This document shows, piece by piece, positions 21,472 through 46,900 of a stretch of DNA of 64,000 nt. Each line of letters starts with the position of its first letter. Position 1 is the first letter of the stretch. A program made the translations under genes and the position numbers. The stretch is from Mycobacterium noviomagense (GTDB lineage Bacteria; Actinomycetota; Actinomycetes; Mycobacteriales; Mycobacteriaceae): NCBI RefSeq assembly GCF_010731635.1, contig NZ_AP022583.1, positions 2,356,001 to 2,420,000 of the forward strand, read 5' to 3'. The notes beneath the pieces are model-generated. The model was given only the letters and a program-made list of their open reading frames with translations. It did no database searches and was not told the origin of the DNA.

Positions 21472-21552
21472 TTAAGCTGCCGTCACACCGGGTAGGCCCC
21501 GGCCGGAGCCAACTTGCTGGCTCTGCGCAGCGCTACCAAGTGGAGCCACCAC

Positions 21553-22518
21553 ATGACCGCGAGTACACCGGCTCACGACGCCGGCTTTGTGCACTCGGCG
21601 CTGTTCTATCGGTCAGAGCAGCAGTATCTGGATTTCGTGGTGAGGTCCGTCAGCGAAGCTCTGAACAACTATGAGCCGGTATGGGTGGCGGTACCGGGCG
21701 ACAAGCTGGCAGCGCTGTCCGAGGCGTTAGGACCCGCGGCCGACGACACCGAGGTGACATTGGCCGACATGGCCGACGTGGGCCGTAATCCGGGCCGGCT
21801 GCTGGGTGTGGCGGGTGCGTTCGTGGAGCGGCATCGGCATCGGCCGGTGCGGTTGATCGGCGAACCGGTGTGGGCCGGTCGCACGGCGGTCGAATACCCC
21901 GCCTGCGTGCAGCATGAGGCGTTGGTGAACCTCGCGCTCGACGGGCACCGGGCGACGGCGGTTTGCCTGTACGACGCCTCCCAACTGGCCGAGGGCGTGT
22001 TGGCGGACGCCCGGACCACCCACCCACTGATCTGCGTGGACGGTTCCTATCAGCACAGCGCTGACTATGCATTCGACGTCGCCCTGCAGCGCTGTAACGA
22101 ACCGCTGACGACGAGCCCGGCCGCGGTGACGTACACGGTCTCGGAATTGGCGAATCTCAGCGCCGCTCGCCAGCAGGGCAGCCGGTACGGCCGATTGCTC
22201 GGCATGGCGGCAGAGAGCATCGCCAACCTGCAACTGATCATCACCGAGCTGGCCACCAACAGCCTGCAGCACGGCGACGGGACATGCCGGCTTGCCTTCT
22301 GGGAACACAGCGGATATCTGGTCTGCGAGGCTCGCGACACGGGAATCCTCGACGACCCGCTGGCTGGGCGACGCCCGCCGAACGGGGACGGGAAAAGCCC
22401 GCGCGGGCTGTTCGTCGTCAATGCACTGGCCGACCTGGTGCGTATTCACGCCACCCCGGCCGGCACGACGATCCAGGTGTTTCTGCGCCTGGACCGGCCC
22501 GCCGAGGACGCCTCTTGA
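21553..22518 (+). CDS. MEDS-domain sensor with RsbW-like ATPase (anti-sigma kinase)
   Basis: 321 residues in two parts. Residues about 10-175 form a MEDS (DcmR-type sensory) domain: FVHSALFYRSEQQYLDF, GRLLGVAGAFVERHRHRPVRLIGEPVWAGR and CLYDASQL. Residues about 205-313 form a HATPase_c_2 domain with the N-box ELATNSLQHG, an ARDTGILDD motif and SPRGLFVVNALADL. Proteins of this build act as RsbA/RsbW-like anti-sigma regulators that phosphorylate a STAS partner. The stop overlaps the next gene (TGATG), which carries a STAS domain and is the likely partner. A deleted second copy lies at 23405. Confidence 0.85.
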   Translation: MTASTPAHDAGFVHSALFYRSEQQYLDFVVRSVSEALNNYEPVWVAVPGDKLAALSEALGPAADDTEVTLADMADVGRNPGRLLGVAGAFVERHRHRPVRLIGEPVWAGRTAVEYPACVQHEALVNLALDGHRATAVCLYDASQLAEGVLADARTTHPLICVDGSYQHSADYAFDVALQRCNEPLTTSPAAVTYTVSELANLSAARQQGSRYGRLLGMAAESIANLQLIITELATNSLQHGDGTCRLAFWEHSGYLVCEARDTGILDDPLAGRRPPNGDGKSPRGLFVVNALADLVRIHATPAGTTIQVFLRLDRPAEDAS

Positions 22519-23396
22519 TGCGCCGCCACGGCGTGGTCACCTCGGCCGTGGACCTTGTCCCGTTCGCTCACCTGGGCTGGGGATATCGCGACCGGGACGA
22601 CTTCGGTGCCCGCGCCGCCGAATGCATTGTCGGCGCCCTTCGCGGCGACCAGCGCATCGAGTACGTCGGTAACGCCGGCCGCGAAGCCTTGCGCGCTGAA
22701 CTGGCCGACCTCGGCTTCGACGAGCAGCTGCGGTCGGGGCGGATCCGGGTGATGCCGGTAGAGGACTCCTACGAGTTCTATCCCGATAGTGACGTCGTGG
22801 ACGCTGAAGCGACGGTGGCCGAACGCGTCGAGGCGACCGACCAAGCGATCGCCGACGGCTACCGCGGCTTGTGCACGGTGAACGACGCGATCGAGCTGAC
22901 GCGCACACCCGAGCAGCGCGACGCATGGGCGGCCTTCGAGTTTCTCATCGACCAAAGGATGCCGGTTCTGCCGTTTTCGGCGCTGTGCGCCTACGACGTC
23001 AACGGTCTGGGTCGGGCTGCGGCGGAGTTATTGTGCCTGCACCCGTTTGTGGGCCCAGATGAGGTGGGCTTTCGCATGTTCGCCGAGCCCGGCGTGGATT
23101 TCGTGCTGGTCGGCGAAATCGACGCGGCCAACGACGACGCCTTCACCGCGGCATTGCGCAGAACCTGGCCGCTGCTGGGCGAGGGCACCATCGTCATCGA
23201 CGCGCACGGGCTTTCCTTCATCACCCACACGCAGCTGCGCACCCTCGACGACTACGCCCGCGCACAGGGCCGCCAAGTGGTGCTGCAAACCGACCAGTGC
23301 ATCGTCGCCCGAGTCGCGGAGCTGCTCGAGTTGACCAACGTACGGGTGCAGGGCGCATCACCGGTGCGATCTTCGTGGCAGAGCTGTGACGCCTGA
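22518..23396 (+). CDS. MEDS-STAS protein, copy 1
   Basis: 292 residues: an N-terminal MEDS domain (about 15-185, FAHLGWGYRDRDDFGARAAE, PFSALCAYDV) and a C-terminal STAS domain (about 190-275, FVLVGEIDAANDDAF, IVIDAHGLSFITHTQL). In RsbV-type STAS domains the segment reads hxDSxG, with Ser as phosphate acceptor. Here the aligned residues are Thr-His-Thr, so the usual Ser is absent. It is coupled to the upstream MEDS-ATPase by TGATG. The likely role is anti-anti-sigma signalling or a scaffold; no sigma gene is adjacent. Confidence 0.82.
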   Translation: MRRHGVVTSAVDLVPFAHLGWGYRDRDDFGARAAECIVGALRGDQRIEYVGNAGREALRAELADLGFDEQLRSGRIRVMPVEDSYEFYPDSDVVDAEATVAERVEATDQAIADGYRGLCTVNDAIELTRTPEQRDAWAAFEFLIDQRMPVLPFSALCAYDVNGLGRAAAELLCLHPFVGPDEVGFRMFAEPGVDFVLVGEIDAANDDAFTAALRRTWPLLGEGTIVIDAHGLSFITHTQLRTLDDYARAQGRQVVLQTDQCIVARVAELLELTNVRVQGASPVRSSWQSCDA

Positions 23397-23404
23397 CTCG
23401 GCGA

Positions 23405-23872
23405 TTGGGGACCCGGTTGCTGGATGAAACCTCCGACAGGACTACGCCCCCCGTCCACGACGTCGTGCACACGGCGCTTTTCGACCGCTCAGAGCGCGAA
23501 TATCTCAATTCCCTGGTGCCGCTGATATCCGGATGGTTGAGTAAGGCCGAGCCGGTCTTGGTCGCACTACCGGGAAACAAGATCGCGTTGCTGCAGGATG
23601 CGTTTGGCGCGCCGGCGGGGGATGTGACTGTGAACCTGACGATGACGGACATCACCGAGGCAGGCCGCGATCCCGGCCGAATCCTCGGGCTGGTGGCTGA
23701 CTTAATGCAGGGGCATCCCAACCGGTCGGTGCACCTCATCGGTGAATCGGTGTGGCCCGAGCGCAGCGAGGTCGAATACCCCGCATGCGTCCAGCACGAG
23801 GCGCTGGTCAACATCGCCACCATTCACGCTTATCTGCGGCTTGACCGGTTCTCGAAGGGCGATGTCCCGTGA
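23405..23872 (+). pseudogene. MEDS-ATPase copy 2 with ATPase domain deleted
   Basis: 155 codons matching the 21553 gene at both ends: the MEDS start (HDVVHTALFDRSEREYLNSL to PACVQHEALVNIA, residues about 10-128 of copy 1) is joined directly to TIHAYLRLDR, the last dozen residues of copy 1. About 177 residues, the rest of MEDS and the whole ATPase, are missing. The frame stays open, so a small MEDS fragment may still be made. The start would be TTG at 23405 or 23417. The stop overlaps the following MEDS-STAS gene. Confidence 0.8.
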
Positions 23873-24738
23873 TGCGCCAGCAGGGTGTGCTCACCTCCGC
23901 TGCAGGCCTCACCCCGTTCGGCCACGTGGGGTGGGGGTATCGGGACCAGTCGGAATTTCTGGCTCGCGCCGCGGAGTACATCGCCGATGGCCTGTCGCGC
24001 AACCAGCGGATCCTGTACGCGCGCGACAGCGGCCGTGCGGCGTTACGCGCGGAATTGCAGGAGATGGGGTTCGGCGACGCGGTCAGGTCAGGTCAGATCG
24101 CGGTGACGCCGGTCGACGAGCACTACATGTTTGTGCCTGGCACCGACGTGGTCGACCCCGAGGCGACGGTGGCTGCCGGCGTCGCCGCGATGGAGTACGT
24201 GGTCGCCATGGGCTGCAGTGGCTGCCGTGGGGTGGTCGACGCGGCGGTATTGGCGCGTGAACCCGAGCAGCGCGCCGCGTTCAGCCGCCTGGAATATCTC
24301 GTCGACCAGAAGATGGCGGTGCTGCCGTTCTCGGCGTTGTGCGCTTACAACCTGACACTGTTGGGGGAGACGGCCAAGCAGATGGTGTGCTTGCATCCGT
24401 TGGTCGGCCGCGGCACGGTCAGCTTCCGGCTTTATGCCCAACTCGGGATGGACTTCGGGTTGGCCGGTGAAATCGACGCCGCCGACAGCGAGGCGTTTAT
24501 GTCCGCGCTACAACGGATCTGGCCGCTGGCGGCCGGCCACGAGGTGATCGTCGACGCGCGAGGTCTGGAGTTCGTTACGCACCGCGAGCTGATGACGTTG
24601 GACGAGCAGGCCGGCGCCGAGGGCCGGCGGGTTGTCCTGCGGACCGACCAGTGCGTGCTCGCGCGCCTGGTTGAACTGCTCGAATTGGAAAACGTCCGCG
24701 TCGAAGCATATCCGCGGCCCGTTGCGGACGCGTGCTGA
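23872..24738 (+). CDS. MEDS-STAS protein, copy 2
   Basis: 288 residues, paralogous to the 22518 gene along its whole length: MEDS (PFGHVGWGYRDQSEFLARAAEY, PFSALCAYNLTLLG) followed by STAS (FGLAGEIDAADSEAF, IVDARGLEFVTHRELMTL). The STAS phospho-site is again changed, here Thr-His-Arg. ATG 23872 overlaps the stop of the truncated copy; GTG 23869 is just upstream. The gene is intact although its ATPase partner is not, so it either works alone or is served by the intact ATPase at 21553. Confidence 0.82.
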   Translation: MRQQGVLTSAAGLTPFGHVGWGYRDQSEFLARAAEYIADGLSRNQRILYARDSGRAALRAELQEMGFGDAVRSGQIAVTPVDEHYMFVPGTDVVDPEATVAAGVAAMEYVVAMGCSGCRGVVDAAVLAREPEQRAAFSRLEYLVDQKMAVLPFSALCAYNLTLLGETAKQMVCLHPLVGRGTVSFRLYAQLGMDFGLAGEIDAADSEAFMSALQRIWPLAAGHEVIVDARGLEFVTHRELMTLDEQAGAEGRRVVLRTDQCVLARLVELLELENVRVEAYPRPVADAC

Positions 24739-35921: not shown

Positions 35922-38470
<2,549 letters not shown>

Positions 38471-38573
38471 ATGTGATGGTGTCCACGCTAGCGCAGCACG
38501 ACAGCAGTGCACACCCCGATGATCCGGACCAATCGGAGCCTGGAAGCTGTGGCTGCCAAGTGCCCGGCGTGGG

Positions 38574-39302
38574 ATGATCGCCAACGTGCAACACAAGCCC
38601 AATAGCGCGGGCGCACCGGCGGACGGCAAACCCGTAACCGCGGCGATGGCGTCTGTCGCCGGCGAGAACCTGAACGTCGGTGCCTTCCGCTTTTGGTTTA
38701 TCGGCCAGCGTTGGGAGTGGTCCGACGAGGTGGCAAGGATGCACGGCTACGAGCCCGGGTCGGTGCAGCCGACGACCGAACTGATGTTGTCGCACAAGCA
38801 TCCCGACGATCGCGCGCACGTCCAGGAGCTTCTGGACTACGCACTGCAGTCGCAGGCGTCGTTCTCCAGTCGTCACCGCTTTATCGACACCGCTGGCAAG
38901 GTGCACGACGCGATCGTGGTGGCCGACCGGATGCTGGACGACAACGGCACAGTGGTGGGCACGGAAGGCTACTACATCGACCTCACCGACGTCTTCGACG
39001 AGACCCGCGACGAGACCCGTCAGGAGGTTCTCGACGAGGCCTTGCCGGATGTGCTGGAAGCCCGGGCGGTGATCGAGCAAGCCAAGGGCATGCTGATGGC
39101 CATCTATCGGATCAGCGCCGACCAGGCCTTCCGCATCCTGCAGTGGCGCTCGCAGGAGACCAACACCAAACTGCGGGTGCTGGCAAGGCAGCTGGTCTCT
39201 GAAGTGGTCACCCTGGTGCCCACGTCCTCAGCGGTGCAAACCCAGTTCGACCACCTGCTGCTGACGGTCCACGAGCGCATCGCGTCCGAGCCTGCTAAGT
39301 AA
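38574..39302 (+). CDS. PAS-ANTAR RNA-binding regulator
   Basis: 242 residues. A PAS domain lies at about 40-140 (WEWSDEVARMHGYEPG, HPDDRAHVQELLDYAL, RHRFIDTAGKVHDAIVVADR). An ANTAR domain follows at about 158-212 (LEARAVIEQAKGMLMAIYRIS, AFRILQWRSQETNTKLRVLA), the fold that binds paired RNA hairpins to prevent transcription termination. PAS-ANTAR proteins are frequent in mycobacteria. The ATG at 38574 is listed; GTG 38586 is possible. It lies 155 bp ahead of the STAS gene, so a link to that pathway is plausible but unproven. Confidence 0.88.
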   Translation: MIANVQHKPNSAGAPADGKPVTAAMASVAGENLNVGAFRFWFIGQRWEWSDEVARMHGYEPGSVQPTTELMLSHKHPDDRAHVQELLDYALQSQASFSSRHRFIDTAGKVHDAIVVADRMLDDNGTVVGTEGYYIDLTDVFDETRDETRQEVLDEALPDVLEARAVIEQAKGMLMAIYRISADQAFRILQWRSQETNTKLRVLARQLVSEVVTLVPTSSAVQTQFDHLLLTVHERIASEPAK

Positions 39303-39456
39303 CGGCGACGGTCCCTACCAACTGGACCTGACCCCGGGTTAGGCTCTGAATCATCTTGTACGGCGAAGACGGCGGATCGGGCACCGCGCCTTGTCTCTCG
39401 ACCGGACCCTGCACACATGGTCTTAGGGCCGGCTGGAAGGAGCCGAGGCGAAAGCA

Positions 39457-39828
39457 ATGGAAGCGTTGACGGTCCACCGTGAGCATGACGACGACGGGAT
39501 CGTGGTACGGGTCAAGGGCGACATCGACTCTGGCACCGTCGGCGACCTCGTCACCGAGCTGACAACCGCGCTGAACCTAGCCTCCACGCACCCGGCTCGG
39601 CTGCTCGTCGTCGACCTGCAGGCGGTGACCTTCTTCGGAAGTGCCGGCCTGAACGCGGTGCTCAACTGTCACGACCAAGGCGCCGCCGCAGGGACATCGG
39701 TTCGTCTCGTGGCCAACCACGCCGAGGTGGTGCGCCCTATCGAGGTGACAAACCTGGACGGGGTGCTCGACGTCTATCCCACGCTCGACGACGCGCTGCG
39801 CTCACCCGAACCCGACAACCAAGCATGA
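39457..39828 (+). CDS. STAS-domain anti-anti-sigma factor
   Basis: A 123-residue single STAS domain. Signatures are VVRVKGDIDSGTVGDLVTEL and VVDLQAVTFFGSAGLNAVL, in which the phosphorylatable Ser of RsbV-type proteins is kept although the usual Asp before it is Gly. Its ATG has GAAGGAG upstream. The stop overlaps the start of the 1279-residue protein by 4 bp (ATGA), which contains both a PP2C phosphatase and an RsbW-like kinase able to act on it. Confidence 0.9.
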   Translation: MEALTVHREHDDDGIVVRVKGDIDSGTVGDLVTELTTALNLASTHPARLLVVDLQAVTFFGSAGLNAVLNCHDQGAAAGTSVRLVANHAEVVRPIEVTNLDGVLDVYPTLDDALRSPEPDNQA

Positions 39829-42800
39829 GCCGGCCCGGCGCCTTGCCGGCCGACCTTGCCGCGGCGGTCGCGCTGGGTGGCGAGATGGGACGTCGGTTCG
39901 CCGAATTCGATTGGGCTGCACACCCATTGGGCTCCCCTGAGCACTGGCCCGTCGAGATGCGCACCATGGTTGCGACGACGCTGACTTCGCGGTTTCCGAT
40001 CGTGCTCTGGCTGGGGCCGCAGGATCTGTTCTTGGTCTACAACGACGCCTACGTTCCGATTTTCGGTGACCGTCACCCGGCGTCGCTCGGGCGGCGCGGC
40101 CGCGAAGTGTGGTGGGACATCTGGGACCAGATCGGGCCCATGCTCGACAGTGTCATCGCCACCGGGAAGGCCACCTGGTCCGACGACTTGATGCTGCCTA
40201 TCGTCACCGGTGGCCGCCGGCAAGAACGGCGCTTCACCTTCAGCTACGGCCCGCTGCTGGGAGATGACAAGGTACACGGCGTATTTGCGGCGGTCAGCGA
40301 GACGACCGAGCGGGTCTTGAGCCAACGCCGCATGCAGGTGCTCAACGCGGTCGGGTCTGCGGTGATGGAGACCCGAACGATCGACGACGCGGTGGCCGCC
40401 GCGGTTGCGGTGTGCGCCGAGCAACCCGCCGATCTGGCGTTTGTCGCCGTCTACGTCAGCGACCCGCAGAGCGGGGACATCACGCTACGGGGTACGACAT
40501 CTTCGGTGCGGTCGTTGTTGCCGAGCTCTCTGGCGGCGGTGACCGAGTTCCATCCGACGGGGCGATCGCGCGGTGAAGCGCACGTCATCGACGACGTCGC
40601 AGCGGTGATTCCCGGCATTGGCGCATTGGGCGACGACTGCCCTGAGCAGGCGCTTGTGTTGCCGGTGGGTGAGGAGGCGACGGCCGGGGCGTTGCTGATC
40701 GGACTGAATCCGCGTCTGCGGTTCGACACCCAATACCGCGGTTTCTGCGAACTACTCGCCGACCAGCTCTCCTCTGCTTTGGCCTCGGCGGTTTCGTACG
40801 AGCAGCAACGACAGCGAGCCGAAGCGCTAGCCGAACTCGACCGCGCCAAGACAGCCTTTTTGACGAATGTCAGCCACGAGTTCCGCACGCCGCTGACCCT
40901 GCTGCTTGGGCCGCTCGAGGATGCGTTGGCCGAAGCCGAGCCGGAAAGCGTGCTCGCCGAGCGGCTCAGCACGGCCCGGCGTAATGCCCAGCGACTGCGG
41001 CGCTTGGTGGACTCCCTGCTCGATTTCTCCCGGATCGAAGCCGGCCGGGCCGCCGCAAGGCTGGTGTGCACCGACGTCGGCGCACTGACCGCGAACATCG
41101 CCTCGTCGTTCACCGAACTCTGCCAGCGCGCCGGACTTGACCTCGTGATCGACTGCCCGCCGGTGCTGGCCGACATCGACCCGGACATGTGGGAGACGAT
41201 CATCCTCAACTTGCTGTCCAATGCGGTGAAATACACGATGCAGGGCACGATTTCGGTCGAGGCGCGCAGCGACTCGGAAGGGTGCCGCATCAGCATCCGC
41301 GACACCGGTGTCGGTATCGCCGAGGACGACCTGAAAAGGCTGGGGGAGCGCTTCTTTCGCGCCGACACCGGCCGCGGACGCAGCGTGGAGGGCACCGGGA
41401 TCGGCTTGTCGCTGGTGCGCGGGCTCGTCGAGCTGCTGCACGGAACCGTGGAGATCGACAGCGAACCGGACGGCGGCACCACCGTCACCATTTGGCTGCC
41501 CCTGTCGCTCGACAGCAGACCCGTGGAGCATGTGCCTGCCGGGCTCGAGGACAACCCCTACGTCGTGGAGGCAAGCCAGTGGCTGGCGGGAGCCCGGCTG
41601 CCCGACGGATCCTCGGAGCGACGCCGCGAGCTGGTCCTGGTCGCCGACGACAACGCCGACATGCGCGCTCATCTGCAGCGCGTGCTATCCCCGCACTGGG
41701 ACACGGTTTTCGTCGCCGACGGCAAATCGGCGTTGAACGCCACCCGCGAGCTCCGCCCGGATGCGGTGGTGACTGACGTGATGATGCCGGAGATGGACGG
41801 GTTCAGCTTCGTTGCCGCGATTCGCGCCGATCCGGAGCTGGCGGCGACTCCGGTGTTGATGTTGTCGGCCCGGGCCGGCGCCGAAGCGGTCAGCGAAGGC
41901 TACGCCGGCGGCGCAGATGACTACCTGCCCAAACCCTTCCGCTCCCAGGAGCTCATCGATCGGCTCGCGGCGCGGTTGTCGGCGGCCGCCCGTGAGCGCG
42001 CGAGTCAGCGACAGCGGGAAGCCGAGGTGCGACGGGCCGCCGCATTGGCCGAACTCGACACGGCGCTGGAGTCCGCCGACTCGGTAGCCGAAATCCTCGA
42101 AGCGCTGTCTGGTTTATCGCTCGGTGGATCCGAGGCTCCCGCGGTGATCTCGCTCGGTGTACTCGACCGGCAAGCGAAGATTGTGCGATTCGAATTCGCC
42201 GGTGCGGTTCCCGCGGAGTACCGCGACCGCTACCACGTGGCGTCGTTGGACGCGCCGCTGGTGCCGGTCGACGTCATCAAGACCGGCGAGCCGATGATCA
42301 TCCCCGACACCTTCGCTCTGCCCGCGCGATATCAGCACGTCGTGCAGCAAACCGAAAGCGGTGTCCGCGCCTGCGTCAGCCAGCCGTTGCGCGATCACGG
42401 TGGTCGCGTCATCGGCTCGCTGGGGTTGCTGTGGGCAACCCCGCGGCAGTTCGACCCGGTCGAGCTCGAGTTGTTCGCTCGGATGGCCCAGCACACCCAG
42501 TCGGCGCTCGACCGGATTTGCGCCCTGGAGCGGGAGCGCCATATCGCCGTCGAATTTCAAGAACAACTTCTCGACCTCGACCGTGGGCAGACGGCTGCAG
42601 TGGTTGCGGCCGTGTACCAGCCGGCGGCGGAGGCGATGCGGGTCGGCGGCGACTGGTACCTGGTCACCCCGCTCGACCGCCCCGGCAGGGTCGGCATATC
42701 TGTCGGAGACGTGGTCGGACACGGGTTATCCGCCGCGATTGTGATGAGCAGGCTGCGCGCCGCAGTGGCGGCAACGGCCCTCACCCATTCCGATCCTGCA

Positions 42801-43664
42801 GCGGTGCTGGGCGTCTTGGACCGCTATGCGGCGACGGTTGAGGGTGGGCGGTGCGCGACGGTCACCTACGCCGTCGTCGACGCAGACAGCGATATCGGGA
42901 CCGCCACACTCAGCTACACCAGCGCTGGCCATCCCTATCCGCTGCTGGTACCGCCGGACGGTCCGCCGGTTTTCTTGCAGGCCGGTCGACGTCCGCCGGT
43001 GGCCGCAGGCGCGATCCCGGCCGCCTACAGTCCGGCGCAGACCGAGCTGGCGCCCGGCAGCCTGATCCTGCTCTACACCGACGGGCTGATCGAACGTCCC
43101 GGTGACACGCTCGACCACGGATTCGCTCGGCTGCGGCAGGCGGTTGCGCACTGCGCGGACCGGCCGGTGGGCGATATCTGTGCGCAGCTGCTTGAGCGGA
43201 TGTGCCCGCCCGGCGGCTACACCGACGACGTCGTGCTGCTGGCGCTGCGGCCGCGCCACAGCACCGCGCGGAGCATGGCCACCGTGCTGCCCGCTGAGCC
43301 GTCACGCATCCGCGAGGCACGCCTGCAGCTGGGCGGCTGGCTGACCGGCATCGGTGTCGACCCGAGCCGCAAGCACGACATCGTGTTGGCGACCGCTGAA
43401 GCGGTCACCAACGCGATCGAGCACGGCAGCCACTGCGATGCCCGCCGAACGGTGTCCATCGAGGCGTTCCTGCGCGGTGACACCGTGGCCGCGACCGTCA
43501 GCGACTCCGGTCAGTGGTCGGGTGATTCCGCGGCCAGCCTGCGCAATCAGCAGGGCGGTCGAGGTCTCACCCTGATCAACGGACTCGCCGACCACGTCGA
43601 CACCGTCCGCAGCGCGCACGGCACTCGGATCACCTTGCGGTTCGACCACGCGGCGCAGCGGTAG
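39825..43664 (+). CDS. Hybrid histidine kinase / SpoIIE phosphatase / anti-sigma kinase
   Basis: 1279 residues with, in order: PAS-like (about 25-165); GAF (about 175-325); HisKA with phospho-His351 (NVSHEFRTPL); HATPase_c (N466, DTGVGIA 493-499, GTGIGLS 523-529); receiver domain (about 602-715; DD 608-609, phospho-Asp651, Lys703); GAF (about 745-895); SpoIIE/RsbU PP2C phosphatase (about 920-1143; GGDW 941-944, GDVVGHG 961-967, YTDGL 1084-1088, TDD 1133-1135); RsbW-like HATPase_c_2 (about 1152-1274; EAVTNAIEHG, GGRGLTLI). All key catalytic residues are present. No membrane segment is seen, so it is a cytosolic sensor. It is coupled to the STAS gene and should control a sigma factor by partner switching. 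Confidence 0.93.
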   Translation: MSRPGALPADLAAAVALGGEMGRRFAEFDWAAHPLGSPEHWPVEMRTMVATTLTSRFPIVLWLGPQDLFLVYNDAYVPIFGDRHPASLGRRGREVWWDIWDQIGPMLDSVIATGKATWSDDLMLPIVTGGRRQERRFTFSYGPLLGDDKVHGVFAAVSETTERVLSQRRMQVLNAVGSAVMETRTIDDAVAAAVAVCAEQPADLAFVAVYVSDPQSGDITLRGTTSSVRSLLPSSLAAVTEFHPTGRSRGEAHVIDDVAAVIPGIGALGDDCPEQALVLPVGEEATAGALLIGLNPRLRFDTQYRGFCELLADQLSSALASAVSYEQQRQRAEALAELDRAKTAFLTNVSHEFRTPLTLLLGPLEDALAEAEPESVLAERLSTARRNAQRLRRLVDSLLDFSRIEAGRAAARLVCTDVGALTANIASSFTELCQRAGLDLVIDCPPVLADIDPDMWETIILNLLSNAVKYTMQGTISVEARSDSEGCRISIRDTGVGIAEDDLKRLGERFFRADTGRGRSVEGTGIGLSLVRGLVELLHGTVEIDSEPDGGTTVTIWLPLSLDSRPVEHVPAGLEDNPYVVEASQWLAGARLPDGSSERRRELVLVADDNADMRAHLQRVLSPHWDTVFVADGKSALNATRELRPDAVVTDVMMPEMDGFSFVAAIRADPELAATPVLMLSARAGAEAVSEGYAGGADDYLPKPFRSQELIDRLAARLSAAARERASQRQREAEVRRAAALAELDTALESADSVAEILEALSGLSLGGSEAPAVISLGVLDRQAKIVRFEFAGAVPAEYRDRYHVASLDAPLVPVDVIKTGEPMIIPDTFALPARYQHVVQQTESGVRACVSQPLRDHGGRVIGSLGLLWATPRQFDPVELELFARMAQHTQSALDRICALERERHIAVEFQEQLLDLDRGQTAAVVAAVYQPAAEAMRVGGDWYLVTPLDRPGRVGISVGDVVGHGLSAAIVMSRLRAAVAATALTHSDPAAVLGVLDRYAATVEGGRCATVTYAVVDADSDIGTATLSYTSAGHPYPLLVPPDGPPVFLQAGRRPPVAAGAIPAAYSPAQTELAPGSLILLYTDGLIERPGDTLDHGFARLRQAVAHCADRPVGDICAQLLERMCPPGGYTDDVVLLALRPRHSTARSMATVLPAEPSRIREARLQLGGWLTGIGVDPSRKHDIVLATAEAVTNAIEHGSHCDARRTVSIEAFLRGDTVAATVSDSGQWSGDSAASLRNQQGGRGLTLINGLADHVDTVRSAHGTRITLRFDHAAQR

Positions 43665-43666
43665 CG

Positions 43667-43942
43667 TCAGACCTCTTCCATCGCTTCGCCGAGCTGCTCG
43701 AGGAGCTTGTTGTGGTGGTTACTGGCCATGATGTGTCCGGCGGCGATGACCAGGGCGACCGGCCAGTCGATGAGCTCGAACATGGCCAGCGCCGCCAAGC
43801 CGCCGTAGTAGGCCAGCTGCTCGGGCCGCGGAACTTCTACTTGGCCCACCACGGGAACATTCACCATGAACGACTCACCGCGGCGTATCTGTTCGACCGC
43901 CTCACTTTGCGATGTACTGCGCCGCGACTTCCTTTCAACCAT
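43667..43942 (-). CDS. Rv0424c-like small membrane protein
   Basis: 91 residues. The N-terminus is basic and Ser-rich, followed by VVGQVEVPRPEQLAYYGGLAALAM and one or two hydrophobic segments (about 43-70) ending in a His/Asn-rich ASNHHNKLLEQLGEAMEEV. Length and position next to ctpH match Rv0424c. Function is unknown. It lies 49 bp downstream of ctpH on the same strand and 2 bp from the convergent signalling gene. Confidence 0.8.
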   Translation of the reverse strand: MVERKSRRSTSQSEAVEQIRRGESFMVNVPVVGQVEVPRPEQLAYYGGLAALAMFELIDWPVALVIAAGHIMASNHHNKLLEQLGEAMEEV

Positions 43943-43991
43943 GATTCGCCTTTCGGTAACTAAGGATTTGCCGTCGAGCCGGGTGCTCCGG

Positions 43992-46900
43992 TCACTGTCG
44001 GACGTATGGCGACGACGGATGCTCTGGCCGACCCGCTAGTTTCAGCGGTGGGCGCGCTGCTGACTGTTCCCCTGGTGCATTTGTACGCGCTGGGGTGGCG
44101 TTTCGGCGTCGTGGACGTCGTGCAGAGCGATCGCTCGTCGGCTCAGCCGGAATCGACGGCTGCTCTGGCCCTGATGCTCGCTGACCAGCGACGAGGCGGT
44201 TTAGCACACCCACCGCGGCGGTTGCGGCGGTCGCCGAACCCAGCGCCTGCGCCCACGCGACTGGACCCAGCGGTGTACAGCCGAGCAGCTGGCTGACGCC
44301 AGGGATGCTGATCAACGTCCCCATCACGATCAGCGAGCCGCCGGCGGTGATCACCACCAGCGGGGCGTGCGAATCCAACAACGTCTGGCCCAGCTGAGTC
44401 GTCACCAACGCGACCAGCGCCGCGGTCGATGCCCGCTGCGGCCGTCCGGTGACGCTCGCCATCGCCCACGCCGCGGTGGCCGCCGCCGCGGTCGTCGCCC
44501 CGCGAACACCGACGGCGCGCCACAGCGCGCGCTCGTCGAGGCCGCGGGTGCCGGGCTTGCCGGCGCTGGTCGTCGGGCTCACCGCGAGGGCCGCCGCCGG
44601 CAGCGCGTCGGTCAACATGTTGACCAGCAGCAGCTGACGGGTGTTCAGGGGCGACTGTCCGGTGATCGCGCTGCCAATGATGGCGAACACCACCTCGCCG
44701 GCGTTGCCGCCGAGCAGCACGGACACCGCGGCCTGCACGCGCCGCCACAGTTCGCGGCCTTCGTCGATGGCTTGCGGCAGCGCTTCGATGCGGGCGTCGG
44801 TCAGCACGACGTCGGCGACCGTGTGGGCAGGGTCGCTGCCGCGCGCCACCACCCCGATACCGACGGTGGCGGCCCGGATCGCGGCGGCGTCGTTGGAGCC
44901 GTCGCCGACCATCGCGCACACCCGACCGGTGCGCTCCAGGGTCTGGACGATCTGCACCTTGTTCTCCGGCGACATCCGGGCGAACACCACACGCTCGGCG
45001 ACCGCATGCTCCTGGCCCTTGCGCGACATCGCGTCCCACTCCGAACCACTGATGACCTGATCCAGCGACACCGGCATGCCCAGCTCCGCGGCGATCGCCG
45101 CGGCGGTGATCGGGTGGTCGCCGGTGATCAGCCGGATGGCCACGTCGCGTTCGCGCAGATCGGCGAGTAGTCCCTTGGCCTCGGGCCGCGGGGTGTCGGA
45201 GAGCCCGAGCAGCCCGACCAACGACAACTCGCCGGCACACAAGTCGGCGATCGCATCGTCGGGGTCGTCGTCGACGGCTCGCATCTGTCCCTGGTTGAGC
45301 TGCCGGCGCGCTACCGCGATCACCCGCAGTCCGCTGGCCGCCAGCTGACGGACCGTGTCGTCCATGCCGGGGCCGACGTTTCGGCAGCGGGCCAATACCA
45401 CCTCCGGTGCCCCCTTGACGGTCAGCTCGTCATCGGTCACCGAGGCCGAGAACGACCGGCCGGAGCGGAACGGCAGATGCGCGTCGGGCTCGCCCGCCGG
45501 GTGTGAACCGTTGACGGCCAGCGCCGCCTCCGTGATCGCGACATCGGTGGCGTGGATCTGCGGGCCGCCGTTGACTGTCGGGGCGGCGTGCGCGGCGCAC
45601 CGCAACACCTCTTCCTGCGAGTAGCCGTCGACGGTATGGACCTGCGCCACCCGCAGCCGGTTCTCGCTGAGCGTCCCGGTCTTGTCGAAGCACACCACGT
45701 CGACGCGTCCCAGCGCCTCCACCGAGCGTGGCACCCGCACAAGCGCACCGAAGTTGGTCAGCCGCCGCGCCGACGCCTGCTGGGCGAGGGTGGCCACCAG
45801 CGGCATGCCCTCGGGCACCGCGGCCACCGTGACGGCGATGCCGCTGGCCACCGCTTCGCGTAATCCCCTGCGGCGCAACAACCCCAGCGCGCTGACCAGA
45901 GCGCCGCCGGTGGCGCTGATCGGCCACGCCCGGTTGGTGAGCTGGCTGAGCTGGTGCTGCAGCCCGATTTCGGGAAGGTCGCCGGATACCAGTTCGGCGG
46001 CGCGCCGCACCTGGGTCTCCGGCCCGACCGCGGTCACCAGCGCAACGCCGGTGCCTGCCACCACGGTGGTCCCGGCGTAGAGCATGCAGCGCCGCTCGGC
46101 CAGGTCGGCGCCGGGTGTGGGGTCGACCTGCTTGGGCACCGACAGTGATTCGCCGGTGAGCGTCGACTCGTCGACCTCGAGGTCTTCTTCCTCGATCAGC
46201 CGCGCGTCGGCAGGTACCACCTCGTGGGTGCGTACCTCGATCACGTCGCCGGGCCGCAGTTGCTCGGCAGGCACCATGGTGTAGACCGGCGTTCCGTCTG
46301 CTTCAGTGCGGACCTTGCGGGCCGGCGGAACCTGTTGCGCCAGCAGCCGATTCAGCCGGTTCTCGGCGCGCAGCCGCTGACTGGCCGCCAGGATCGAGTT
46401 TCCGGTCAGCACCGAACCGACCATCACCGCGTCGACGGGCGACCCGAGCACCGCGCTGGCCGCCGAGCCCAGCGCCAGGACCGGGGTGAGCGGGTCGGAC
46501 AATTCGGCCCGCACCGCCTTGAGGAACTGCCAGACCGCCCGGCTCGGTGTTCCGGTCACCTGAGCGCCACGCTGGGCGGTGGCCAGCGCACGCGTCGCCA
46601 TCGGCCCGTGGCGCGGCTCCGCTGCTTCTTCGGGGGGCGGCAATATTTTGCGCACCTGCTCGACCGACATCGCGTGCCACTCGTGGACGGGTGCGGGAAT
46701 CGGGGTGGGCGCCGAAACCACCCGGCGGGCCAACAGGTAGCCGGACAGCAGACCGGCCGCGGCGCCGGTGGTCACCGGGCCGGGCCCGCGGCCCCGCACG
46801 CCGGGCAGCATGAACAGCGCCCCCAAAGCCGAAGCGCCGGCGGCGATTTCCATGCCGCGCCGGGTCGCCGCCTTGGCGGCCGGAAGCGCGTGCAACACCC

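What the first reader, a model, noticed from the sequence alone, without database searches (positions are those of the whole stretch)
39825..43664. One protein carries a phosphorelay and a full partner-switching switch
Seen: PAS-like, GAF, HisKA (H351), HATPase, receiver (D651), GAF, SpoIIE phosphatase and RsbW-like kinase in a single 1279-residue chain, all with catalytic residues, and a 4-bp overlap with a STAS gene. Known: RsbU-type phosphatases and RsbW-type kinases act oppositely on a STAS protein; M. tuberculosis Rv1364c fuses PAS-RsbU-RsbW-RsbV but lacks the histidine kinase and receiver. Inference: histidine-to-aspartate phosphotransfer inside the chain sets the balance between phosphatase and kinase on the coupled STAS protein.
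Basis: partly seen in the sequence, partly recalled or inferred. Interest (0 to 1): 0.8.

Follow-up and report, generated by a model that had tools for sequence, protein, structure and literature searches.

The report
Sensor kinase fused to stress switch
A mycobacterial protein joins a complete sensor (histidine kinase plus receiver) to both enzymes of a stress switch, which are expected to put a phosphate on and take it off a small neighbouring partner protein; the protein is real and has widespread relatives, and related genomes repeatedly lack it (probably by loss) while keeping the partner and a predicted RNA-binding gene, which hints at an unexpected output.

Summary
Window 39825-43664 encodes one 1279-residue chain with HisKA (H351), HATPase, receiver (D651), GAF, SpoIIE-type PP2C phosphatase and RsbW-type kinase, all above Pfam cut-offs; it overlaps a STAS gene by 4 bp. 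Catalytic residues hold in nearly all of 77 long relatives. It is not unique: the best 120 of 3073 homologues all list this domain set, 84 of 148 genomes of the genus match, and full copies occur in Rhodococcus and Streptomyces. Characterised systems are split differently (RsfS/RsfR, RsbK/RsbY, HsbR, SypE, Rv1364c); I found no functional study of the fused form. Intrachain phosphotransfer is likely (no Hpt match in the genome) but untested; its sign is unknown. The phosphorelay is a detachable input on a STAS switch. SigF control is the default output; ANTAR is a weaker alternative.

The parts
38574..39302 (+). PAS-ANTAR protein (242 aa), predicted RNA-binding antiterminator; first gene of the operon
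   Evidence: PF03861 ANTAR E 2.2e-19, PF08447 PAS_3 E 5.1e-11; a homologue upstream of STAS in 42 of 44 loci with an upstream STAS
39457..39828 (+). STAS-domain protein (123 aa), presumed substrate; Ser62 (codon 39640-39642) is the presumed phosphosite
   Evidence: PF01740 E 8.7e-15; TIGR00377 ant_ant_sig over its cut-off; Ser62 in 44 of 44 upstream STAS and in 10 of 10 STAS of hybrid-less loci
39825..43664 (+). Hybrid protein (1279 aa): PAS-GAF-HisKA-HATPase-REC-GAF-PP2C-RsbW
39846..40304 (+). PAS-like domain (residues about 8-160)
   Evidence: below cut-off here, over the cut-off in short relative L170; AF2 model read by eye
40332..40799 (+). first GAF-like domain (residues about 170-325)
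   Evidence: AF2 model read by eye; GAF_2 over its cut-off at this place in relatives L195, L226, L227
40845..41045 (+). HisKA, phospho-accepting H351 (codon 40875-40877)
   Evidence: PF00512 E 6.6e-15; H in 77 of 77 long relatives
41178..41507 (+). HATPase_c (catalytic domain of the histidine kinase)
   Evidence: PF02518 E 1.1e-35; N466, D493, G495, G525 in 77 of 77
41634..41966 (+). Receiver domain, D651 (codon 41775-41777)
   Evidence: PF00072 E 4.4e-23; D651, S681, K703 in 77 of 77
42090..42512 (+). second GAF domain
   Evidence: PF13185 E 8.7e-21
42513..42599 (+). GAF-to-PP2C linker (residues 897-925), candidate transmission element
   Evidence: 79% identity within clade I and 82% against three short forms, against 63% and 60% in the GAF before it; linker role by analogy with PMC12143880
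42600..43250 (+). SpoIIE-type PP2C phosphatase
   Evidence: PF07228 E 1e-39; D943 and D962 in 77 of 77, D1086, D1134 and D1135 in 76 of 77
43287..43640 (+). RsbW-type (HATPase_c_2) serine kinase domain
   Evidence: PF13581 E 9.8e-32; E1192, N1196, D1227 and the Gly residues in 76 of 77, one gap

Best explanation
The operon PAS-ANTAR / STAS / hybrid is a cytoplasmic partner-switching module with its own sensor. The PAS and first GAF domains set the autophosphorylation of H351; phosphate passes to D651 of the same chain or of its dimer mate; the receiver acts through the helix at 715-755, the second GAF and the conserved 897-925 linker on the PP2C domain. The PP2C domain removes, and the C-terminal RsbW-type domain adds, phosphate at Ser62 of the STAS protein encoded just upstream. 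The state of the STAS protein is the output. Unphosphorylated STAS most likely releases a SigF-type sigma factor by binding its RsbW-type anti-sigma factor. Shown: domains, conserved residues, operon order, conserved STAS pairing, optional nature of the HK-receiver part. Inferred: intrachain transfer, linker route, STAS as substrate, SigF as target. Open: the sign of receiver control (I lean weakly to lowering the phosphatase, as in RsfR) and the signal.
For: Domains; conserved residues over 77 long forms; HisKA, HATPase and receiver are as conserved as PP2C (78-84% against 73% within clade I); same-strand STAS partner upstream in 24 of 26 clade I and 4 of 4 short forms, downstream in 49 of 51 clade II; invariant phosphosite Ser; closest solved relative Rv1364c, whose kinase and phosphatase act on its own STAS domain at Ser600 (passages of PMC10950880); no Hpt match in the genome, while 8 of 14 control genomes ring; one relative carries STAS in the same chain behind PP2C and RsbW (L231, 1700 aa, STAS_2 just over its cut-off); the four short forms keep PAS-GAF-PP2C-RsbW or GAF-PP2C-RsbW beside the same STAS (Pfam on two of the four), so the HK-receiver part is an input, not the core; a receiver-PP2C phosphatase acting on a STAS protein is shown in M. 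smegmatis (RsfR on RsfB, PMC10950880). SigF link: a SigB/SigF-family sigma gene two genes upstream of a hybrid on an M. gordonae plasmid; SigF-like promoters before 4 of 51 clade II hybrids against 0.3% of 3240 random stretches.
Against: No SigF-like promoter before any clade I hybrid (0 of 26) or at this operon, and no SigF-family sigma gene in the window (the three matches in the genome lie elsewhere). The own genome holds at least four other STAS/RsbW/PP2C sets, so the target is not pinned. The STAS gene is intact, Ser included, in 10 of 10 loci that lack the hybrid, so the hybrid is not its only reason to be kept; but 4 of these 10 genomes (G007, G107, G094, G042) have a clade II hybrid elsewhere that could act on it. 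All four genomes with a short form (G047, G006, G119, G045) also have a clade II hybrid elsewhere, so the short forms do not prove that the organism can do without the phosphorelay; and one short form (L173) has Asn for the first PP2C metal Asp. Two clade I hybrids (L167, L168) have no same-strand STAS neighbour. Intrachain transfer has no direct test here; in B. cereus RsbK the receiver acts as an inhibitory element rather than a relay step (PMC4574943, passages).
Confidence: 0.6

Rival explanations
1. Same enzyme, different output: the STAS protein switches between the hybrid's RsbW domain and the PAS-ANTAR protein encoded beside it, so the switch gates RNA binding (antitermination) rather than a sigma factor.
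For: A PAS-ANTAR homologue is present in 42 of 44 hybrid loci with an upstream STAS (one of the two misses, L190, is cut by its contig end) and in 0 of 37 without; each of the ten hybrid-less orthologues of this STAS (47% identity or more) has ANTAR next to it; hybrid presence needs at least 7 changes on a 43-row tree and STAS presence 4, with ANTAR the last gene left, as expected if ANTAR lies at the output end; in two genomes of the order the same HK-receiver module is fused directly to ANTAR (L241, L243).
Against: ANTAR, STAS and hybrid lie in that order, so stepwise loss from one end could give the same series. L145 keeps STAS and hybrid without ANTAR, and in L157 and L169, also with STAS and full hybrid, the ANTAR gene is matched only in broken or partial form. 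No STAS gene is listed beside PAS-ANTAR in five Rhodococcus plasmid records (that gene table is incomplete). Other ANTAR-type genes sit before hybrids without this STAS (annotated in R. ruber L226; by eye in L180). Not corrected for shared ancestry; no binding data.
Confidence: 0.18
2. The receiver is a phosphate sink or brake on the histidine kinase and does not drive the phosphatase; PAS/GAF signals reach PP2C and RsbW without His-Asp phosphorylation.
For: Short forms keep PAS-GAF-PP2C-RsbW without HK and receiver; the receiver of B. cereus RsbK is inhibitory (PMC4574943, passages); the receiver-to-GAF2 linker is less conserved (66% within clade I) than the GAF2-to-PP2C linker (79%).
Against: The residues for transfer are conserved in 77 of 77, bar D608 (Glu in 2); related proteins put the receiver before PP2C, RsbW or ANTAR outputs, which fits a receiver that drives outputs.
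Confidence: 0.25
3. The C-terminal RsbW domain is itself the anti-sigma factor, holding SigF or another sigma factor directly, with the STAS protein as its antagonist.
For: Rv1364c was reported to bind SigF in vitro (cited in PMC10950880 and PMC7693655, passages); CrsR-type proteins hold a sigma factor with such a domain (PMC6482189, passages).
Against: A separate RsbW-like gene lies beside the SigF-family gene in the own genome (HATPase_c_2 match at 2952597, sigma at 2953028); in M. smegmatis the RsfB kinase RsbW2 gave no two-hybrid growth with SigF, unlike RsbW1 (PMC7693655, passage).
Confidence: 0.12

Closest known systems
RsfS/RsfR/RsfB/RsbW2 of Mycobacterium smegmatis (PMC10950880, PMC7693655)
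   Same: His-Asp signalling controls a PP2C phosphatase that, against an RsbW-type kinase, sets the phosphorylation of a STAS protein.
   Different: Four separate proteins, membrane CHASE3 sensor, receiver on the PP2C protein. The window's genome has a locus of like domain order too (L004/L135 near 2247-2250 kb; REC-SpoIIE confirmed; orthology not tested) besides the fused one.
Rv1364c of M. tuberculosis (PDB 3ke6)
   Same: PP2C plus RsbW kinase in one chain; best solved match.
   Different: PAS sensor only, STAS fused at the C terminus, no histidine kinase or receiver (domain list as given in PMC10950880, passages).
HsbR (Pseudomonas) and SypE (Vibrio fischeri)
   Same: Receiver, PP2C and RsbW domains in one chain acting on a STAS protein (HsbA, SypA).
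   Different: The histidine kinase is a separate protein; HsbR gets phosphate through the Hpt protein HptB (PMC6482189, PMC12826045, passages).
RsbK/RsbY of Bacillus cereus
   Same: Hybrid histidine kinase drives a receiver-PP2C phosphatase on RsbV.
   Different: Two proteins; no kinase domain fused; receiver of RsbK is inhibitory (PMC4574943, passages).
SCO7327/OsaD of Streptomyces coelicolor
   Same: Listed as a hybrid kinase with receiver, without transmembrane helix and with no known partner, in a genome said to lack Hpt proteins (PMC9739842, passages); called OsaD and linked to osmotic stress sensing (PMC9739823, passage). That it carries PP2C-RsbW is recalled, not tested; the S. fungicidicus relative L227 does.
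   Different: Its cascade is described as unclear; STAS genes lie on both sides of the S. fungicidicus relative, and no ANTAR gene is listed there.

Membership tests
Hybrid histidine kinase | HisKA with His, HATPase_c with N/G boxes, receiver with phospho-Asp, in one chain | tested here: met
Hybrid histidine kinase | autophosphorylation and transfer to the receiver | not testable with these tools
   needs purified protein
SpoIIE/RsbU-type PP2C phosphatase | PF07228 with metal-binding Asp residues | tested here: met
   E 1e-39; 76-77 of 77
RsbW-type serine kinase | PF13581 with conserved E/N box, D-x-G and G-x-G | tested here: met
   E 9.8e-32; 76 of 77, one gap
RsbV-type STAS antagonist | STAS domain over cut-off with Ser/Thr at the phosphosite | tested here: met
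   the residue before Ser is Gly, not the Asp of the downstream STAS
RsbV-type STAS antagonist | binds an anti-sigma factor when unphosphorylated | not testable with these tools
   no binding data
Rv1364c family (PAS-PP2C-RsbW-STAS) | STAS fused to the C terminus | tested here: not met
   STAS is a separate upstream gene
Rv1364c family (PAS-PP2C-RsbW-STAS) | PP2C-RsbW homologous over the whole tandem | tested here: met
SigF partner-switching pathway | acts on RsbW1/UsfX-SigF | tested here: inconclusive
   no SigF-family gene in the window, one elsewhere in the genome at 54% identity to the M. gordonae plasmid sigma; sigma-hybrid neighbourhood on that plasmid
HsbR/SypE-type response regulator | receiver fused to PP2C and RsbW with a separate histidine kinase | tested here: not met
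   kinase is in the same chain

The most novel reading that the evidence does not exclude
The hybrid and its STAS protein gate a PAS-ANTAR RNA-binding antiterminator by partner switching: a two-component sensor, a serine phosphorylation switch and an RNA-level output in one three-gene operon, in which the sensor enzyme has been shed several times while STAS and ANTAR stayed.
Probability: 0.16. Interest if true: 0.82.

Novelty: new variant of a known kind. Interest (0 to 1): 0.5.

Why it matters
How SigF-type partner switches receive signals in mycobacteria is an open question: PMC8115616 concludes that unknown alternative pathways exist, and PMC9739842 notes that three hybrid kinases of Streptomyces coelicolor have unclear cascades and no Hpt partners. 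A chain that carries kinase, receiver, phosphatase and serine kinase together suggests a direct answer: the output sits on the same protein. The natural series (full hybrid, hybrid without HK-receiver, no hybrid) makes the role of the phosphorelay testable by comparing related species, and the tie between this STAS and an ANTAR gene raises a testable RNA-level output.

Tried and rejected
Chance ORF or misread domains: rejected. Uniqueness: rejected. A DNA-binding or Hpt output: no such Pfam hit in the chain, no Hpt match in the genome. A conserved structured leader between ANTAR and STAS: the stretches vary from 0 to 157 nt and the consensus fold of 26 rows is empty, on a gappy alignment, so a weak test; Rfam over 36500-44200 found only the thiC TPP riboswitch above its gathering score. 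SigF-type promoter for this operon: none. Short forms as the ancestral state: the best tree nests them inside the long clade I and 0 of 200 bootstrap trees hold the long forms as one clade, but the AU test does not reject it (p 0.125); loss is also favoured because the outgroups that I chose for that tree are all long. Against this, the own Rv1364c-like protein, which lacks HK and receiver, falls inside clade II in a FastTree run, so the module has come or gone more than once. The genome-contig scan kept 80 of 590 relatives, by their match mostly distant hybrid kinases, and was not used. Loose downstream-STAS matches in three clade I loci (L145, L150, L169) were looked at but not counted as partners.

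Limits: of the clade II rows, 51 loci were fetched and the weakest were not. The 20 loci were picked by hand for variety of frame length, so their counts are not frequencies; 8 of the 20 were scanned with Pfam, the other 12 rest on BLAST coverage. The presence/absence series rests on 43 of 148 genomes in which the locus was found and fetched; the other 105 were not examined there. The tree is a quick one without bootstrap, and its change counts do not tell gain from loss. Gene calls in fetched loci come from my own GC-frame caller, which missed some small genes; neighbour counts use the all-ORF BLAST, recounted. The longest-ORF rule hides true starts: the exact 4-bp STAS-hybrid overlap is seen in 15 of 24 clade I, 4 of 4 short and 9 of 16 clade II loci with an upstream STAS.

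Full report
What is there. The chain at 39825-43664 is a complete ORF of 1279 residues. Pfam gives HisKA, HATPase_c, Response_reg, GAF_2, SpoIIE and HATPase_c_2 in that order, all above cut-off. The N-terminal PAS is below cut-off in this protein, but a model of residues 1-345 (pLDDT 80.9) has strand/helix orders that I read as PAS then GAF, and relatives pass the PAS or GAF cut-offs there. The STAS gene 39457-39828 overlaps by 4 bp. Upstream lies a PAS-ANTAR gene, 38574-39302, which the finding does not mention. The three genes sit between a thiC gene (36742-38382, minus strand; named by eye, with a TPP riboswitch at 38367-38476) and a conserved 91-aa gene without a Pfam match (43667-43942, minus).

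How common it is. The best 120 of 3073 homologues all list HisKA, HATPase_c, receiver, SpoIIE and HATPase_c_2. In the genus 84 of 148 genomes match at E <= 1e-60, falling into two groups. Clade I (60-70% identity; 26 loci with the window) lies at the thiC locus in 24 of 26. Clade II (about 42%; 51 loci fetched) lies elsewhere and has a STAS gene downstream in 49 of 51. Over these 77 long forms H351, N466, D493, G525, D609, D651, S681, K703, D943 and D962 are invariant; D608 is Asp in 75 and Glu in 2; the other PP2C and RsbW residues checked hold in 76 or 77 of 77. Full architecture is confirmed by Pfam in a clade II protein and in Rhodococcus ruber and Streptomyces fungicidicus plasmid copies. 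In the order, 90 of 200 genomes match at E <= 1e-100, outside clade I nearly always over the sensor half in the best-scoring piece. Eight proteins picked for variety show the same HK-receiver module with different ends: PP2C+RsbW (L234), PP2C+RsbW+STAS (L231), PP2C alone (L240), RsbW alone (L244, L247), ANTAR (L241, L243), none (L236).

The STAS partner. A same-strand STAS gene lies just upstream in 24 of 26 clade I loci and 4 of 4 short forms, and in 16 of 51 clade II loci. Its phosphosite Ser is invariant (44 of 44), as is the Asp-Ser of the clade II downstream STAS (49 of 49). A PAS-ANTAR homologue accompanies the upstream STAS in 42 of 44 loci and is missing in all 37 loci without it (Fisher p 5e-21, not corrected for ancestry). 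Of the two misses L190 is cut by its contig end, while L145 truly lacks it; in L157 and L169 the ANTAR gene is broken or partial.

A natural series. At the same locus 24 genomes keep the full hybrid. Four keep a short one: L170-L172 retain PAS-GAF-PP2C-RsbW (707-709 aa) and L173 only GAF-PP2C-RsbW (538 aa), the latter with Asn for the first PP2C metal Asp. Eight keep ANTAR-STAS only, one of them (L255) with a broken remnant of the hybrid's start, and seven keep ANTAR only. With two further loci (L258, L260) ten hybrid-less STAS genes were read; all are intact and keep the Ser. On a quick tree of the flanking proteins plus ANTAR (43 rows) hybrid presence needs at least 7 changes and STAS presence 4; with the remnant in L255 I read this as repeated loss. 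The best tree of the PP2C-RsbW part puts the short forms inside the long ones, but the opposite is not rejected (p 0.125). A caution: all four genomes with a short form, and four of the ten with hybrid-less STAS, have a clade II hybrid elsewhere, which could act in trans. So the HK-receiver part is a detachable input at this locus, and STAS and ANTAR are kept without the local hybrid.

Mechanism. Established families give the frame: PP2C removes and RsbW adds phosphate on a STAS Ser. In M. smegmatis a receiver-PP2C protein (RsfR) acts on RsfB and its phosphorylation lowers the phosphatase; in B. cereus RsbKY the effect is the reverse (PMC10950880; abstract, passages and first part of the Discussion read). 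Because no Hpt protein was found in the genome, the receiver most likely acts on its own chain. The 29-residue linker between the second GAF and PP2C is 79% identical within clade I and 82% against three short forms, well above the GAF before it (63% and 60%); PMC12143880 (passages read) shows that such linkers drive PP2C dimerisation in RsbU. I therefore place the convergence of HK-receiver and GAF signals there. This route is inference.

Output. The own genome has a SigF-family gene (54% identity to the M. gordonae plasmid sigma) with an RsbW-like gene beside it, a STAS-RsbW-HK-REC/PP2C locus resembling RsfB-RsbW2-RsfS-RsfR, an Rv1364c-like protein with separate STAS, an RsbRST-like cluster and a further STAS-RsbW pair (names by domain, orthology not tested). 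SigF is the default target: a SigB/SigF-family sigma gene lies near the hybrid on an M. gordonae plasmid, and SigF-like promoters precede 4 of 51 clade II hybrids, but none of 26 clade I hybrids. The ANTAR association argues for a second, less likely possibility, an RNA-level output.

Relation to the known. Each part is known; the fusion of histidine kinase, receiver, PP2C and RsbW in one chain is common in databases (annotated SpoIIE family protein phosphatase), but I found no functional study of it in the held library (searches; that library lacks most subscription journals, and de Been 2011 on RsbK-type kinases was not held). SCO7327/OsaD is named as a hybrid kinase of unclear cascade (PMC9739842 and PMC9739823, passages); that it has this architecture is recalled. 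PMC8115616 (abstract and two sections read) asks for unknown SigF-activating routes in mycobacteria and does not mention this protein in those parts. I rate it a new variant of a known kind.

Noticed in passing
window 21514-24738: Cluster of MEDS-domain genes: MEDS-HATPase_c_2 (21514-22518), MEDS (23405-23872), MEDS-STAS_2 (23869-24738): another possible anti-sigma/antagonist set about 14 kb from the operon.
   Followed up: partly
window 38367-38476 (-): TPP riboswitch just above its gathering score in front of thiC, divergent from the operon.
   Followed up: no
L231 740-5842: 1700-aa chain with HK, receiver, PAS, GAFs, PP2C, RsbW and STAS_2 together: the whole phosphorelay and switch in one protein.
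   Followed up: partly
L241, L243, L244, L247: The same HK-receiver module fused to ANTAR (two) or to an RsbW domain without phosphatase (two) in other genomes of the order.
   Followed up: partly
L225 (M. gordonae plasmid p1): Hybrid two genes behind a SigB/SigF-family sigma gene; no STAS gene listed beside it, and its annotated C-terminal end looks out of frame.
   Followed up: no
clade II loci, upstream of hybrid: SigF-like promoter pattern in 4 of 51 against 0.3% of 3240 random 250-nt stretches.
   Followed up: partly
L125 152-2497 and L002: RsbR-RsbS-RsbT-RsbX-like cluster followed by a PP2C-RsbW protein in the window's genome (RsbRD_N slightly below its cut-off).
   Followed up: partly
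L157 and L169: ANTAR gene broken (two frames) or partial (matched residues 167-240) although STAS and the full hybrid stand.
   Followed up: partly
window 43667-43942 (-): 91-aa protein without Pfam match, with a homologue next to the operon in all 43 loci of the series.
   Followed up: no
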